Positions 583 to 40,722 of a stretch of 64,000 nucleotides of DNA are shown here, one piece after another. Made by a program: the position numbers and the translations under genes. Source of the DNA: Casuarius casuarius (taxonomy: Eukaryota > Chordata > Aves > Casuariiformes > Casuariidae). The notes under the pieces are model-generated. The model ran no database searches. It was not told the origin of the DNA and saw only the letters and a list, made by a program, of their open reading frames with translations. Position 1 is the first letter of the stretch. Each line of letters opens with the position of its first letter. The stretch lies in the NCBI GenBank assembly GCA_003342895.1, contig PTFA01000317.1, positions 867,109 through 931,108 of the forward strand. Reading direction: 5' to 3'.

Positions 583-1919
583 CTGCGCGGAGGAGCAGCA
601 ACAGATCAACAAGAGCTGTTCAGTGCGTCCTGCAGCTGTCACAAACTCATCCAAGTCTACAACCTCTGCCCGTGCTGAAACATCAGCCATAACATATAGA
701 TTTGATATCCAAATTAATGCTTTTAACAACTTCAGCATGTTATATATCCACACTCATACCAAAAATCCACATTTAATTTAAAACGTCTTACACAGGTGGC
801 TATTGTGAAAATACGTGACAGGGCTACGCAGGGTTCAGAAACATTTCAAGGCTGAACACGACTTATAGAGGATAAAACAACGGCGACGTGGGCCTGTCTT
901 CTGCAAAATAAATGTGACAGGCTTGGTTCAGGATCACAAAACTGCCATCTTCCCCTCAAACAAATGTCTTTTGTGCTAAGACAGATGGCTGACCAGGCAC
1001 AGGAAGCCCAAAAGTAGAGGGAACAGCGAGAAGCAATCACGGAAAACTAGTAGGTGGATGAAATCATTTTGGGAACATAGCTGTGTTTTCCAATTTGTCT
1101 GTGCATGAAATTCAGAGTGGAAATGTTTCTGCACATAAGAATCACCAATCTCCCGATTCCTCCTCGAATCTTACGGGTGAATATGTAGTGATTACGCCAA
1201 AAGCAATGAGGTACCTCGCTCTGACTGAGAGCAGGCTAAGGTCCTCGTGTTGGCACTTCAGAAATAACAACAATATTTCAACAAGTCCCAAAATACAGCA
1301 GAGAAAACCACATGTGTAATAACACCAGATAAAATCGCAGAACGGTTTCTGCCAGCGAGTCAAGGTCTAAAGAGCTTTTATTAGACCAGCTGATAAATCC
1401 TGACACGACGGTCTCAGGCCAACAGGAAAGCTCGCTTGCCCAAAAGCACGCCTCTGCTTCCTAATCGTACGGCAGATCTAACAAAAGATACTGCCTCTCC
1501 CTCCAGTCTTGCTTCGCCTGGGTCTCCCAGGCTAGGAGAAACCATTTTAAATTCCAATAACAACTCGGTATAACTCAATGCAGGTAAAGGCCATTTGAAG
1601 TGCTTCACTTTTTAAATGGCCCATGTGCAGTCATTAGCCTGTGATGCCTTTACTTGAACAATCCTGTGATGTTACTTTAGCCAAATATTTCCCCTCCTGG
1701 ACAAAAATCTTGGTCAAAAAGACAGTCAAGGAATGAAGCGTGCATTAACCCCCAACCCCTCCAAACTGAGTTATTCCTCATAGCACAAGCACATGGCTCT
1801 GCTGGTGGCACCGGGAAAATAAAAACTCTTCCTCCCCATTCGATTAAAAGCTTTCTAGCTTAGAGATATTTAGTTATTAAATAATTTGCACGCACCTGTT
1901 TTATGGGCTCTCCTCTCAC
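583..1919 (-). other. EIF4G3: Intron 12 of window (1.3 kb)
   Basis: GTGAGA to CTCCTCCGCGCAG. AT-moderate, with no repeat family, exon or RNA gene recognised. Confidence 0.87.
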
Positions 1920-21986: not shown

Positions 21987-22109
21987 CTGAGGTGGAGTAG
22001 GTGTGGAAGTGGGTCTCACGATGGGAGGCGTTGGGTTCCTGCTGCCCCCTCCGGACATAATTTCTTCCGTTATATCTTTGCCCCCCTGGTTCGGATCCCG
22101 GATTCGGAT
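21987..22109 (-). CDS. EIF4G3: EIF4G3 exon 7 of window ([20 protein letters not shown])
   Basis: A 123-nt exon, acceptor ATATCATAG, donor CTCAG|GTAACA, phase 0 at both ends, residues 233-273. The first twenty residues, [20 protein letters not shown], are essentially invariant between eIF4GI and eIF4GII and across vertebrates. They are followed by [21 protein letters not shown]. The specific role of this conserved block is less well defined than the PABP and eIF4E sites. Symmetric phase and a length divisible by three allow frame-neutral skipping. Donor GTAACA is weaker than the others in the gene. Confidence 0.98.
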
Positions 22110-25077: not shown

Positions 25078-25178
25078 CGTTTTTTTCTCTCTCTTAGCTG
25101 GCGGCGGCTGCTGCTGCTGCGTAGGCACTATGATGGGCGCTGACTGATACACTGGCTGACTTGGGTAGAAAGGTGTTC
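25078..25178 (-). CDS. EIF4G3: EIF4G3 exon 6 of window (polyQ-PPP and KREKKT)
   Basis: A 101-nt exon, acceptor CTTTCCCAG, donor AAAACG|GTAAGG. It completes the split Gly codon and encodes residues 200-232, TPFYPSQPVYQSAPIIVPT, four glutamines, PPPAKREKKT. The glutamines come from a pure CAG run; human eIF4GII has three there, so the run is slightly expanded and may vary. The basic KREKKT leads into IRIRDPNQ of exon 7, a junction conserved in eIF4GI ([14 protein letters not shown]), which strongly supports both splice sites. Confidence 0.98.
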
Positions 25179-28761: not shown

Positions 28762-28876
28762 CGTAGGCGTTAGGGAATTCTCCAGGACCTGGTCCTGGAT
28801 AAAACGGGCCCGGCCCTGGCGGCTGAACAGGATACTGCTGTGGGGGCCCAACGTACGGAGGGCCGCTATGACGATA
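28762..28876 (-). CDS. EIF4G3: EIF4G3 exon 5 of window (YRHSGPPYVG block)
   Basis: A 115-nt exon, acceptor TTTCCCTCCTAG, donor TACG|GTGAGT, starting in phase 0 and ending with one base of a split Gly codon. Residues 161-198 include YRHSGPPYVGPPQQYPVQPP and a run of Gly-Pro steps around FYPGPGPGEFPNAY. It continues the Pro-, Gly- and Tyr-rich amino-terminal region found in both eIF4GI (TQQYPVQPGAPGFYPG) and eIF4GII. It is probably disordered. The split G joins GA of exon 6 to give the YGTPFY sequence expected of eIF4GII. Confidence 0.97.
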
Positions 28877-29125: not shown

Positions 29126-29305
29126 CTGTGGTATACAGTACTGGGGGCCCTGAGGCATCGGATACGGCATTGGCAGATGATTAACCATCATGATGTGCTG
29201 GTTGGTTTGATACACTGCAGTTGGTGTTTGTGCACCGGGACGGATGGAAGGGCTGCTGTTCTGGATGGTGGCTCTCGGAGGCTGTATCTGAGGCCTCTGG
29301 AAAAA
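29126..29305 (-). CDS. EIF4G3: EIF4G3 exon 4 of window (PABP-binding region)
   Basis: A 180-nt exon, acceptor CTGCCCCAG, donor CCACAG|GTAAGA, phase 0 at both ends, encoding residues 101-160. It runs from FFQRPQIQPPRATIQNSSPS through IRPGAQTPTAVYQ and NQHIMMVNHLPMPY to GPQYCIPQ. The stretch around VYQTNQHIMMVNHLP aligns with the eIF4G segment that contacts RRM2 of poly(A)-binding protein, so this exon likely supplies the link that circularises mRNA. It is among the best conserved blocks of the window: only a few residues differ from my memory of the human protein. A second AG nine bases into the exon (TTTTTCCAG) could act as an alternative acceptor. Confidence 0.98.
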
Positions 29306-30182
29306 CTGGGGCAGGAAAGGGAGAGAGGAAGGAGAGGAAAGAAAACCAGGAAAAAAGAAAAAAAACTTGTCAAACTTTCTGTAAGAGAGTTTGTGGTATC
29401 ATTACAACAGCAGGCAATACCATACTGTAATTACAATACTACTTCCAAAGGGTTGCCACACATTCAGAAAACTGCAGGACAATTTCTTTTTATCTGCAAA
29501 TAGCCAGATCATGCTACAACCTTCAATTTTACAAGGTAGAGAGAGATAGCAAAAGGTAAGAGCAAACGTGAAACTTTAAACTCAAATAATTATGAGTTTG
29601 TAACTACTGAATTATACACCCCCACCTTTCAGAATGACAGTCGGAAAAATGACTTTTGTCATATATTTTTTATAAGGTGGGTTGGCTGCCAGAAGCCACC
29701 ATTAGAAATATGCTAAGGAAATAAAAGATCAAGGCAACTGTTGCAATATAACTCTGGAACAGCTGAAATCCAGACCTCATGAAGGCCACAGGTGCCTCAT
29801 ACCTATCCCGTGTTCAAATTGCGATGGGCAACTTGTCCTGCACTTCTCTTTCAAAGGGGTGGCAACCTCTTCCAGAGTGGCACCAAACTCTTCTACCGTG
29901 TTTGCATGAAGGGATGCCCCACGCAAGTGGACCAGGTCCAGGAAACCAAGCAAGCCACTGGCACCCGTTCGGTTCTCCACTCCCAGCACTGGGAAAGGCA
30001 CCGGCACCCACGGTACGGAGCATCCGTGGCACTGGACGCCCCGGCTCCAGTTACTAGAGTCTTTGCAATCTCGAAATTCGGCTGGCGAGATGGGCATCAG
30101 ACATCAACGCATTCGCTACCGCGATAACGATACAAGTGATAAAGAGACACTCAGGCCATGCAGAACCAGGAGTTAAAATTAC
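29306..30182 (-). other. EIF4G3: Intron 3, part downstream of the microexon (877 bp)
   Basis: Begins GTAATT at the microexon donor and ends with a long pyrimidine tract (29306-29370 on the transcript strand) leading to CTGCCCCAG before exon 4. It carries the UGCAUG element near its 5' end. No repeat was recognised. Confidence 0.85.
30157..30162 (-). promoter_or_regulatory. UGCAUG (Rbfox-type) splicing enhancer candidate
   Basis: TGCATG on the transcript strand at intron positions +21 to +26 after the microexon donor. Rbfox proteins bind (U)GCAUG, and sites downstream of an exon generally promote its inclusion in neurons and muscle. The position is ideal, but a six-base motif can arise by chance. 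Confidence 0.6.
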
Positions 30183-30203
30183 CTGTATAGGTCTGAATCC
30201 TCC
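30183..30203 (-). CDS. EIF4G3: EIF4G3 21-nt microexon encoding GGFRPIQ
   Basis: Seven in-frame codons, GGFRPIQ, lie between an AG at 30205-30204 and a GT at 30182-30181. Phase is 0 at both ends, so inclusion between exon 3 (TRSP) and exon 4 (FFQRPQ) simply inserts seven residues. From memory, some mammalian eIF4GII isoforms carry this heptapeptide, and eIF4GI has a paralogous GGFRSLQ microexon at the equivalent place; in mammals these eIF4G microexons are neuron-enriched and depend on SRRM4. The flanks fit: acceptor TTATTGAAG is weak (A at -3), UGC triplets begin at -16, -24 and -27, and UGCAUG lies at +21 to +26 downstream. The insertion sits immediately before the PABP-binding exon. Confidence 0.88.
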
Positions 30204-30216
30204 CTTCAATAACGAA

Positions 30217-30230
30217 GCAAGAAAGCAGCA
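30217..30230 (-). promoter_or_regulatory. UGC cluster upstream of microexon (SRRM4-type)
   Basis: Three UGC triplets on the transcript strand, within TGCTGCTTTCTTGC, begin 27, 24 and 16 nt upstream of the microexon. SRRM4 (nSR100) acts through UGC motifs close to the 3' splice site of neural microexons. Confidence 0.6.
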
Positions 30231-33200
30231 GGAAACAGAAAGAAAGCCAATGGAACAGCTTACAGATCAATAGGAAGGAATAGGATATAACATGCACCCT
30301 AATTGCACACAATTCCAGTCATCTTTCTGTCCTGCTTTGGCTAATCCGTTACAGAAATAGCAAGAAAGAGACTGAACCGGTTTCAAGGACTCTTCTATCA
30401 GAATCCCAAGTCGGGGGTCAGAAACCCTTCTACAAGTGTTTTATATGGAAGTTTAAAAAAAAAACCCCACCATAGACGTAATTAATTGTAGGAAATATGA
30501 TACTACAGAAAGATTTTACGTTTACTTTGTTTCTAAATCATAAAGACATTTTTCTCTTCCTTTCTGGTCTCTGAGTGATACAGAGATAGCGGAAAACAGC
30601 AGTAACCCATGCTTAAATCATGGATTTGGTCTCCACTTCTGCACCAAGACTGGAAGAATAAGAAATTCCATTTAATTGCTAAGCAAAAAAAAAAAGAGAG
30701 AAAAGAAAAAGAAAAAAAAGGTAATCATACATCACTTGACATTGAAGACTGCTGATTGATGAAGTGTATGCAAATAGTCTGTGGGTAACTATATCATGAG
30801 TAGCGAGAAGAAAAGAGTGTGGTAATTATTAAAGAATGAAAGAATGAGCTGGGCTTATCTGCCTCGGCACTGGGAAAAAATGAGGCGGGGCAGAAGGGGT
30901 AGGGCAGAAGGATGCATCTATACTTGACATGACAGTGAAATTAAAATGGTCATTCCGGCGTTCCTGAGGACCACATGACACCTAAGTTGTTCCCACACTA
31001 CATGATTTCTCCAGAAAAGCCAGCGATGACTCCCTGTCTCAGCACCCACATACAATTAGAAGAGGAACACAACGATTTGGCTTCCAACACGGGTAATCGG
31101 GATGAAGGATTGTCACCAGCATAGGGGACAACGCGACCTGAATCACAAGAAGGCAACTGTCTGGGGAGAAGAGGCTGGTGGGGAAAGACAACCAGAAGAG
31201 CGACCCACTCCTGCACTAACAAGAGTTGCGCGACTGTCTAGATGTAGGATACTACACCACTGTTGCGTGTAACAAGGACACGCTCTAAACCGATGGCGAT
31301 AGTAACCAGAGTTAACACCCTACCCGGCCTGCACCATAGTCAAATCTAGAGATAGCGGGGAGCAAAGACAGGAGGGTTTCATTGCTCCTAGGAAGACGGA
31401 CACAGCAAGAAGAAAATCAGATCTGTTATTCTAAGCAACAAGACAGCCAGGACTGTTTGGGACAGCTCTCTGGCAAAATTTAAATTACTTTTAGATATAC
31501 GAGTTCCCATCAGTAAAGCTAAAACTCTAAAGAAAACCAGATATCAGAGCTGCGTATGGGTTTTGCTGTTCAAAACAAGTAGGATCTGGCGGCAGGCTGT
31601 TTCCTGCTCCATCCTTGCTCCCCTCCCTCCAAAGCTAAGCTAGCAACACTCAAAGCCCTTCTTGGAAACATTTCGCTCTTCTGACTTCATTTGCTAACGG
31701 ATTCGTCTTGCAAGGTTAAGCAGATGGGCGCGCAGACAACGTTTTCAAGCAGTGCTAATGGCGTCCCACAGGAGAAAGCAAGGAGATTAAAATCTGAGCG
31801 GTTTTCTCTCTATTTCTTCCAATAACTGCAGGATTCACAGCGGAGCGCATACGGCACCCGGTCAGGGCCAGAATTAAGGTGCCTTGGCCCACAGCACAGC
31901 TTCAGTTGGAAAAGCCTTGCTATACCAACCCTTCCTTGACCACATCCTTCAGAAATCAAGGCCTGCTACGCCTAACGATGGTCCAATTAGCGTGAAACCT
32001 GCCATCGGCAGGCCAGCCAAGAACTTAGCCTTGGGCTCCAGGTCACGGTCCGGTCCCTGATCTGTCTTGTACCACCGAGCGCTGTCACATAATCCTGTTC
32101 CTAAACCGATCAGGTCCCTTCTTGAAAAGAGTTTGGCTGTTTGTCCCCGTTGCTCATATTGCAAAACCTCAAAAAAATCAGTTTACTCATGGTGAGTAAG
32201 ACTGGGCAATAGGACCTCTCAACCGAACGAAGCAACGACCTCCTCTTCCTCCGTGGGGTTGCTCCTCCAAAATACAGAGCTCCAAAAAGCTCAACTCTGA
32301 GCTCCTACAACATATAATAAAAACTCCTCCTTAGCACCGAAGTCTAAGGGCTTGCTCTTTGCAAAGCTGAACTACCCCTTGCTTCCAGTCCCCCCACGTT
32401 AACCACATTTCCTAGCTTTATATTCATTAAGTTTGCTGCAGACACCTATCTGTTATTTGTGCCGGGGTAATTAGCACAAATATTAGGGAAATCCAGGAGT
32501 AACCTCCCTCATACCCTCTCAGCACTGCCCTGCCTGGTTTTTAGTCTTTTATATATACCTTAATATCCTTCTATTAGATATTATCATCTCCAGCTTAACT
32601 TTCTCCCCACGTGACCCCATGTCAAACGTCCGCTGAAGGCCAGCCAGACGAGAGGCACCATGTTTGTCATCGAGAAAAATCAATGACCGAGGAGAGGGAC
32701 AATCTCCTGATAAACCTCCAGTGCGTTTTAATTGATTTTCCGTTTACTCCCGCATCTCTGTTTCTGAGCCCTCGCTTCCAGCGAGATGTCTCCGAAGCAC
32801 TCCCTACGGACGCTAAAAGCTTCCCCGAGAAATAAAGGGGAGGCAGCACTCTGAAAACACACCTCTGCTAATCTCAGCCTAACAGGCTACGCCTTGGGCA
32901 CGGACCCACTTATTCCCGGATCAGATTCGACCTGGCAGCTGCGATGGAGCCGTGCGGCCCCTCAAGAGGCTGCGAATAAAGGAAGCAAAGGAGAAGTTCA
33001 GCGAGTTGTCGCCAGCGCTCTCGAAGCAAATCACGCTCTCGTCTCCAGTTAAACCTCTTGGATACTGTGTTATTAGTTTTTAAACTTTCTGCTCCGGCTA
33101 AGATGGCGGGATAACCCGCTTTGTTATTTAATAAACAATAAAATTGGGGGAAAAAAACCCAAACACCCTTGTGTTGACCGCAGGCTTTAAAACTGCTACC

Positions 33201-35639: not shown

Positions 35640-36200
35640 AGCGGCAAGCGAGCCGGAGGGCCGCCCGGCCGATGCTGACGCCGATGCCGACGCGTGCCCG
35701 GCGCGGCAGGCAGCCCGGTAGGGGGGTTAGCGGTGCCGGCCGGCGTCCTGTGTTAGTGGGGGTGAGCGCCCGCCCGCCCGCCGCCCCCCCGGCCGTTAGC
35801 GAGGGTGAGACCGAAGGGGCAGGTACTGTACCTGGTGATGGGCAGGTCGAGGCCCCGCTGCAAACTGAGGAAAGGCGGGAGAAACAAACACAAAAGGAAA
35901 GGCACAGAGAGTCAGAAACACCACAGCGCAACCACAACGTCACACACTACGCAAAATCGCCCCGCGCGGGGAACCACGGACGTCAGAGCTGCGCTGCGGG
36001 ACAGCGACGGAGCGGTCCCGGGGCGAAGGAGGGGCTCGACCCAGCGACTCTGCACGTACGCAGGGCAATTGCGTTTTCGGATTTGTTTTTAAATAAGGAT
36101 CACAGCGCAACCCTCCAACCTCCACGGGTAGGAGCCGGGTTAGCCGCGGCGCCCCGGCGGTGGACCTTGCACGGGGCCCTGCTTCCCGCTCCCCAGCTCG
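35640..36200. promoter_or_regulatory. CpG-dense region, possible internal promoter
   Basis: Dense CpGs occur from the stretch near 35660-35720 through CCGCCCGCCCG (about 35769) to about 36200, set in an otherwise moderate-GC intron. CpG islands in vertebrates commonly mark promoters, and this one lies upstream of the microexon and PABP-binding exon, where a shorter eIF4G3 transcript could begin. On the minus strand, 35769-35790 shows five G runs (7, 2, 3, 3 and 3) of quadruplex type. There is no direct evidence of transcription start. Confidence 0.4.
35832..35857 (-). other. Candidate alternative exon (26 nt) or 3' end of an alternative first exon
   Basis: On the minus strand a pyrimidine-rich acceptor (CGCCTTTCCTCAGTTTGCAG) precedes 26 nt that end CACCAG|GTACAG, a good donor. 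As an internal exon it would shift frame (26 is not a multiple of three) and so would probably act as a poison exon or as 5' UTR. As the end of a first exon starting in the surrounding CpG-dense DNA it could splice to the microexon or exon 4. No conserved peptide was recognised, so this is a splice-signal prediction only. Confidence 0.25.
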
Positions 36201-38846: not shown

Positions 38847-39547
38847 AAACGGTGCCATCGGCACAATCGCCTGCAAGAAGGAGTACAGTTTGTTATATTG
38901 CTTACAATGCAGTATTTTATCCAGCCTCTTCCAGCCAGGGACCTGTAAACCGGACTCTGTTCCAAAACCTTCCTCCTCTTCCAGTTGTCTGTGCAATGTA
39001 TTGGCACTGTTCTGCTGGGCTGTCAAAAAAACTGGTTTAGAGATGCAGCTCTTCAGTCAGGTTTTGCTCCAGTTCTAACCATATAAACTTATTTTCGCTT
39101 TTCAACAATTAAAGATAAAGAAGATGATTATACTTACTGAGAAAAGATTTTTTTTTTTTTTTTTTAAACCATCGGTATCCCACATTACTGATCAGAACGG
39201 GGGACTAAGGAGGTGGGGACGGGGGGGTCCAGTTACAAATTCGCAGCTGTCCACATCGCAGAAACGTCACCAAAACTGGCATTAATTGCTGGCTCAGTTC
39301 TGAGGCCTGCCGACCTCCGCGCTAACCCTGCTGCGAGTCCCCCGGAGGCGAAACCTCCGGGAGCGGGGCAAGCACAGCGGTGCCGCTGCACGCGGGGGAC
39401 AGCCTGCCCTGTCCTATACCTGGGAGCGGGGACAAACAGAGGACTTCTGTCGCGGAGGCTTTCGGTTGCCACGCTTCAGCAGCATTCATCTTACTCTAAA
39501 AAGAGAAGAGCGCTGGGAATGGTGCAGGGTTTTTGGGTTTGGGGTTG

Positions 39548-40377: not shown

Positions 40378-40473
40378 CGGCGAGCGGGTCTGCGGCTGCG
40401 TGTTCATTGTCTGAGGGGCTTGAGGGTACACCAGCGTGGTCGGAGCGGCATTCTGTCCTGAGGGGTACGGAGC
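40378..40473 (-). CDS. EIF4G3: EIF4G3 exon 3 of window, containing the internal start Met
   Basis: A 96-nt exon, acceptor CCCGGCAG, donor CGCCG|GTAAGG, phase 0 at both ends. It encodes 32 residues, APYPSGQNAAPTTLVYPQ followed by APQT and then MNTQPQTRSP. The ATG at 40407-40405 corresponds to the methionine that begins the originally described human eIF4GII (MNSQPQTRSP). It has A at -3 (GACAATGA), an adequate initiation context. The frame upstream is open and conserved, so two protein starts are plausible: a long form from outside the window and a short form from here. The YPSGQNA and TLVYP blocks resemble the corresponding part of eIF4GI. The exon can be skipped without shifting frame, but that would remove the internal start. 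Confidence 0.97.
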
Positions 40474-40595: not shown

Positions 40596-40722
40596 GGAAA
40601 AGACCTTCTCCATCATGGCCCCAAGCGGTCCATCCCCCGAGAAGACCTTCTCCATCATGGCCCCAACCGGTTCATCCCCCGAGAAGACCTTCTCCATCAC
40701 GGCCTCAACCGATTTATCCCCA
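40596..40722. repeat. 42-bp minisatellite, about three copies
   Basis: The segment beginning GACCTTCTCCATCA recurs at 40602, 40644 and 40686, an exact period of 42 bp. Copies one and two differ at few positions; the third has drifted more. It lies in intron 2, with its near edge about 120 bp upstream of the exon 3 acceptor. The period is a multiple of three and an open frame crosses it, but nothing suggests that it is translated. Confidence 0.9.

What the first reader, a model, noticed from the sequence alone, without database searches (positions are those of the whole stretch)
30157..30230. Neuronal-type 21-nt microexon in EIF4G3 with SRRM4 and Rbfox signals in place
Seven codons (GGFRPIQ) sit between valid splice sites, in phase 0, at the position where eIF4GI has a paralogous GGFRSLQ microexon. 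A weak acceptor (GAAG), UGC triplets beginning at -16, -24 and -27, and UGCAUG at +21 form a complete regulatory layout. Automatic annotation often drops exons this short. Inclusion places a basic/aromatic heptapeptide directly before the PABP-binding exon, so it could tune translation in neurons. Its presence in a sauropsid as well as mammals would date the switch to before the amniote split.
Basis: partly seen in the sequence, partly recalled or inferred. Interest (0 to 1): 0.88.

Follow-up and report, generated by a model that had tools for sequence, protein, structure and literature searches.

The report
Known neuronal microexon of EIF4G3

Summary
Of 4470 minus-strand AGs examined, only this one has that 21-nt/UGC/UGCAUG layout. 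It is not new: the 21-nt EIF4G3 microexon is a published, SRRM4-linked brain exon, with mouse and zebrafish deletions in print. The identical heptapeptide stands in 51 of the 319 proteins retrieved, from birds, mammals, turtles, a snake and teleosts; eIF4G1's GGFRSLQ stands in 33. So it predates the amniote split. Corrections: the PABP-contacting segment lies about 125 residues downstream (exons E-F), not in the next exon; two more in-frame cassettes (39019-38906, 35864-35832) lie in the same intron, so 40378->30203 is one of several upstream junctions; a second UGCAUG lies at -93, where Rbfox tends to repress. Extra: two turtle eIF4G1 records show a similar second cassette just before GGFRSLQ, so the pair may predate the eIF4G1/eIF4G3 duplication. 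Neural inclusion in this species is inferred.

The parts
30183..30203 (-). 21-nt microexon GGFRPIQ of EIF4G3, phase 0
   Evidence: identical heptapeptide in 51 retrieved public proteins
30204..30245 (-). acceptor region: pyrimidine-rich tract with UGC at -16, -24, -27 and weak acceptor gaag
   Evidence: 42 of the 60 bases upstream are pyrimidines
30157..30162 (-). UGCAUG (Rbfox-type motif) at +21
30291..30296 (-). second UGCAUG at -93..-88, upstream of the microexon
40378..40473 (-). EIF4G3 exon A (APYPSG...TRSP), ends phase 0
38906..39019 (-). in-frame cassette X1, 114 nt (PSRTVPIHCTDN...WIKYCI)
   Evidence: present in some public isoforms
35832..35864 (-). in-frame cassette X2, 33 nt (FAAGPRPAHHQ)
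   Evidence: its HHQ ending precedes the microexon in 19 of 51 public records
29126..29305 (-). EIF4G3 exon C (FFQRPQIQ...CIPQ), begins phase 0
28762..28876 (-). EIF4G3 exon D
25078..25178 (-). EIF4G3 exon E, ends KREKKT: start of the segment matching the solved eIF4G peptides
21987..22109 (-). EIF4G3 exon [21 protein letters not shown]: rest of that segment
1920..2053 (-). EIF4G3 exon K with the eIF4E-binding site ([12 protein letters not shown])
   Evidence: Pfam PF21140 (27.2 bits, cut-off 27)

Best explanation
This is the orthologue, in a bird that is probably a palaeognath, of the known SRRM3/4-linked neuronal microexon of EIF4G3. In non-neural cells the pyrimidine-rich tract and weak acceptor leave it skipped (PTBP1 probably contributing); in neurons SRRM4/SRRM3 at the UGC triplets, helped by Rbfox at +21, drive inclusion. 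The inserted GGFRPIQ lies in the N-terminal part of eIF4G3, which a review describes as prion-like. By analogy with the eIF4G1 counterpart it most likely changes assembly with mRNP granules and slows translation of synaptic mRNAs, rather than touching the PABP site. Shown here: sequence, phase, splice sites, motifs, conservation of the heptapeptide. Inferred: neural inclusion in this species and the molecular effect.
For: Exact exon and layout. 51 of 319 retrieved proteins carry the same heptapeptide at the same EIF4G3 junction; the pattern used (GG[FY][RK]..Q next to exon C) found no near variant, though a more divergent one would have escaped it. The eIF4G1 counterpart GGFRSLQ stands at the matching junction in 33. 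Literature: a 21-nt microexon 'exon 6a' of human EIF4G3 in healthy-brain circRNA (17 reads, against 16 without it), and a circRNA construct with it that needed SRRM4 (PMC7697094, passages); microexon knockouts of both genes in mice and the granule / ribosome-stalling model for eIF4G1 (PMC10551640, PMC8670310, PMC8911335, passages); zebrafish eif4g3b microexon deletion and the canonical UGC-plus-UC layout (PMC12626420, passages and part 1 of Results); mouse Eif4g3 cassette microexon with high inclusion in cerebellum (PMC4801060, one passage).
Against: No RNA data for this species. A second UGCAUG at -93 could act the other way, since upstream Rbfox sites tend to cause skipping (PMC10551640). 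The mouse Eif4g3 microexon deletion was described as having no behavioural phenotype (PMC12626420), so the effect in EIF4G3 itself may be small. Conservation of the intronic motifs could not be tested: no vertebrate genomic DNA other than the window was reached.
Confidence: 0.95

Rival explanations
1. The microexon is one unit of a larger in-frame cassette array (X1, X2, microexon) whose combined splicing tunes the eIF4G3 N-terminus in several tissues, not a stand-alone neuronal switch.
For: All three cassettes are phase 0 with AG/GT in the window. Among the EIF4G3-type proteins retrieved, each of the eight combinations of X1, X2 and microexon occurs at least once after exon A. A muscle-specific Eif4g3 exon is reported in mouse besides the microexon (PMC4801060, one passage); whether it is X1 or X2 was not determined.
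Against: X1 and X2 lack the UGC/UGCAUG layout: one UGC each in -40..-3, no UGCAUG within 200 nt. The isoform records are largely gene models and need not be abundant. This reading is compatible with the best explanation rather than opposed to it.
Confidence: 0.5
2. A decayed or never-used pseudo-exon that keeps its sequence by chance.
For: None beyond the lack of RNA data for this species.
Against: Identical residues in teleosts, mammals, turtles, a snake and birds, valid sites and open frame.
Confidence: 0.02
3. The microexon arose by tandem duplication of the start of exon C (FRPIQ resembles FQRPQIQ).
For: Nucleotide alignment of the microexon with the first 60 nt of exon C scores 18.5; 14 of 5000 shuffles reach it, and none of the 10 other exon starts does (best 15.0).
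Against: Post hoc comparison. In the teleost records the microexon is unchanged while exon C begins FFQRAQMQ or FFQRTQMQ, and the chimaera record has FFPRPQMQ, so the resemblance is weaker outside tetrapods; eIF4G1 GGFRSLQ beside HFYQSRAQ shows little.
Confidence: 0.06

Closest known systems
EIF4G3 21-nt neuronal microexon ('exon 6a') of human, with mouse and zebrafish orthologues (Gonatopoulos-Pournatzis et al. 2020, Mol Cell, seen only as cited in papers read here)
   Same: Same gene, 21 nt; the same seven residues occur at the same junction in primate EIF4G3 records (P0018, P0105-P0109). That human exon 6a encodes GGFRPIQ was not read in a paper.
   Different: Only the species; neural inclusion not shown here.
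EIF4G1 neuronal microexon GGFRSLQ
   Same: Matching position between ...QPRQ and HFY..., same length, 5 of 7 residues identical; an SRRM4-linked eIF4G1 microexon is in print.
   Different: Paralogous gene; residues SL in place of PI.

Membership tests
EIF4G3 neuronal microexon (orthologue) | 21-nt phase-0 exon encoding GGFRPIQ between the TRSP and FFQRP exons | tested here: met
EIF4G3 neuronal microexon (orthologue) | gene is EIF4G3 rather than EIF4G1 | tested here: met
   733-residue spliced product: the ten best hits are all named EIF4G3/IF4G3, 70-89% identical; 9 of the 10 cover at least 94% of the query, P0008 covers 83%. eIF4G1 records come far lower (from P0073 down, 155 bits or less against 1335).
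EIF4G3 neuronal microexon (orthologue) | alternative (included and skipped isoforms) | tested here: inconclusive
   both forms are annotated in other birds; nothing for this species
SRRM3/4-dependent microexon | UGC plus pyrimidine tract directly upstream, weak 3' splice site | tested here: met
   layout as described in PMC12626420 and PMC10551640
SRRM3/4-dependent microexon | loss of inclusion when SRRM3/4 is lost | not testable with these tools
   needs RNA data
Rbfox-activated exon | (U)GCAUG downstream and conserved | tested here: inconclusive
   UGCAUG at +21 present but a second one upstream at -93; frequency in the window is at chance; conservation not tested

The most novel reading that the evidence does not exclude
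X2 and the microexon form a two-cassette splicing module that was already present in the single eIF4G gene before the vertebrate duplication into eIF4G1 and eIF4G3: turtle eIF4G1 records carry FPAGPRALHQQ-GGFRSLQ where EIF4G3 carries FAAGPRPAHHQ-GGFRPIQ.
Probability: 0.65. Interest if true: 0.35.

Novelty: already known. Interest (0 to 1): 0.15.

Why it matters
It shows that a brain microexon reported as misregulated in autism (PMC7697094, passage) is kept unchanged in a bird probably of the palaeognath lineage, and the protein survey dates the heptapeptide at least to the common ancestor of teleosts and tetrapods. The paired-cassette observation in eIF4G1 and eIF4G3 would, if confirmed, date this splicing module before the vertebrate gene duplication.

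Tried and rejected
DNA scans for other copies of the exon: viral contigs gave 0; genome contigs gave 16 stretches matching a loose pattern, all titled as bacteria or bacterial MAGs, taken as chance and not used. Rfam: 0 matches in the window. Exact peptide searches in papers: GGFRPIQ 0 papers; GGFRSLQ, GPRALHQQ, GPRPAHHQ, GPRPPHHQ 0 papers; this says only that these strings are not in the held full texts. Tandem-duplication origin: tested and not favoured. No structure was predicted: a seven-residue insert in a probably disordered region was not expected to give an informative model.

The protein searches were seeded with sequences bearing the microexon or with an eIF4G1 N-terminus. One search scored only the 7987 candidates sharing most words and listed 91; two searches listed the best 120 of 1391 and of 2630. 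So 51 of 167 EIF4G3-type records and 33 eIF4G1 records are presence data, not inclusion rates, and several records are isoforms of one species. In one search, 29 of 319 retrieved proteins showed no junction that my patterns recognised and were left out of the isoform counts; one of them (P0285) does carry GGFRSLQ and is in the 33. Of the 167, 2 begin at exon C and 7 show some other sequence before it.

Full report
What is there. On the minus strand, GGAGGATTCAGACCTATACAG occupies 30203-30183 and reads GGFRPIQ in phase 0. It follows ...ttattgaag and is followed by gtaatt. Exon A (40473-40378...QTRSP) and exon C (29305-29126, FFQRPQIQ...) flank it in the same phase.

Is it more than chance. I examined 4470 AG dinucleotides on the minus strand. 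GT follows 21 nt later in 283, three or more TGC precede in 238, both hold in 19, and one (this exon) also has TGCATG within about 100 nt downstream. The single motif UGCAUG is at chance level in the window (37 against 35.5 expected).

The gene. Twelve exons including the microexon, from 40473 down to 457, splice into an open 733-residue product; without the microexon the frame also stays open (726 residues, no stop). I chose the exon ends from splice sites and from memory of vertebrate EIF4G3. The best hits of the product are annotated EIF4G3 of birds, alligator, turtles and mammals. In the variable exon H the nearest of the retrieved records are ostrich (91.3-91.6%) and kiwi (89.0%); the other records among the best 25 by score are at or below 86.3%. 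The window is therefore probably from a palaeognath bird; this is inference.

Conservation. Among 319 proteins retrieved in three searches, 51 carry GGFRPIQ, all at an EIF4G3-type junction; the pattern GG[FY][RK]..Q found no near variant there, but a more divergent one would have escaped it. By the names in the listings these are 27 bird, 18 mammal, 2 turtle, 1 snake and 3 teleost records; several are isoforms of one species, and the three teleost records are named hypothetical or uncharacterized and are assigned to EIF4G3 by their junction. The eIF4G1 counterpart GGFRSLQ stands at the matching junction in 33 records. The searches were seeded with the microexon or with an eIF4G1 N-terminus and listed only the top of long hit lists, so these are presence data, not rates; 29 of the 319 showed no junction that I could read. 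The teleost records, with the zebrafish eif4g3b microexon in print, place the exon before the split of teleosts and tetrapods, which supersedes the amniote dating. The chimaera EIF4G3 record (P0063) and the shark record of eIF4G1 type (P0074) show no microexon in their models, which does not show that the genes lack it.

More cassettes. Public isoforms led to two further in-frame exons in the 10-kb intron upstream: X1 (39019-38906, 114 nt) and X2 (35864-35832, 33 nt, FAAGPRPAHHQ), both bounded by AG and GT. In the 51 microexon-bearing records the residues just before the microexon are TRSP of exon A in 30, HHQ of X2 in 19 and KYCI of X1 in 2. Two eIF4G1 records, both turtles (P0211, the head of a cluster of 178 whose other members I did not read, and P0285), show FPAGPRALHQQ directly before GGFRSLQ. 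Beside FAAGPRPAHHQ-GGFRPIQ this suggests that the X2-microexon pair is older than the eIF4G1/eIF4G3 duplication; the evidence is protein records only, and no lamprey, hagfish or invertebrate record that I retrieved shows the region.

PABP. The stretch that matches the solved eIF4G peptides 1lj2_C and 4f02_C is residues 165-192 of a query in which the microexon is 33-39; it is encoded by exons E and F. That 4f02 is a complex with PABP is recalled; the call names only eIF4G1. The microexon is thus about 125 residues away from that site, not directly before it.

How it works. In print, SRRM4/SRRM3 bind UGC upstream of microexons with weak, PTBP1-prone 3' splice sites and promote their inclusion, while Rbfox promotes inclusion from downstream and tends to cause skipping from upstream (PMC10551640, passages). 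The 21-nt EIF4G3 microexon was detected in human brain circRNA, and a circRNA construct with it required SRRM4 (PMC7697094, passages). High inclusion in mouse cerebellum is reported (PMC4801060, one passage). Deletion in zebrafish eif4g3b altered the dark-flash response and brain activity, and a mouse deletion is described as having no behavioural phenotype (PMC12626420, passages and part 1 of Results). For eIF4G1, inclusion enhances phase separation, granule association and ribosome stalling (PMC10551640, PMC8670310 and PMC8911335, passages). The likeliest effect here is the same kind of brake on translation, probably weaker for EIF4G3; this is inference. The primary paper (Gonatopoulos-Pournatzis et al. 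2020) was not read, only its citations; PMC12626424 was opened and only its reference list names eIF4G.

Verdict. A correct observation of a known exon. Ordinary in kind; the modest additions are the deeper dating, the extra cassettes, the corrected PABP distance, and the possible ancient pairing with X2.

Noticed in passing
39019-38906 and 35864-35832 (minus): Two in-frame alternative cassettes of EIF4G3 (114 and 33 nt) inside the intron upstream of the microexon.
   Followed up: yes
P0211 and P0285 (turtle eIF4G1 proteins): An X2-like cassette FPAGPRALHQQ directly before the eIF4G1 microexon GGFRSLQ, resembling EIF4G3's X2-microexon pair.
   Followed up: partly
40600-40721: Tandem repeat of a 42-base unit, 2.9 copies, 92% matches, about 130 bases upstream of exon A on the minus strand.
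   Followed up: no
30291-30296 (minus): Second UGCAUG, upstream of the microexon, which would favour skipping if bound by Rbfox.
   Followed up: partly
1896-1919 (minus): The kea EIF4G3 record P0001 reads on past exon K as VRGEPIKQ before VNQPKLP; the window holds the same codons after 1920, followed by gtgcg, so exon K seems to have a longer alternative end.
   Followed up: no
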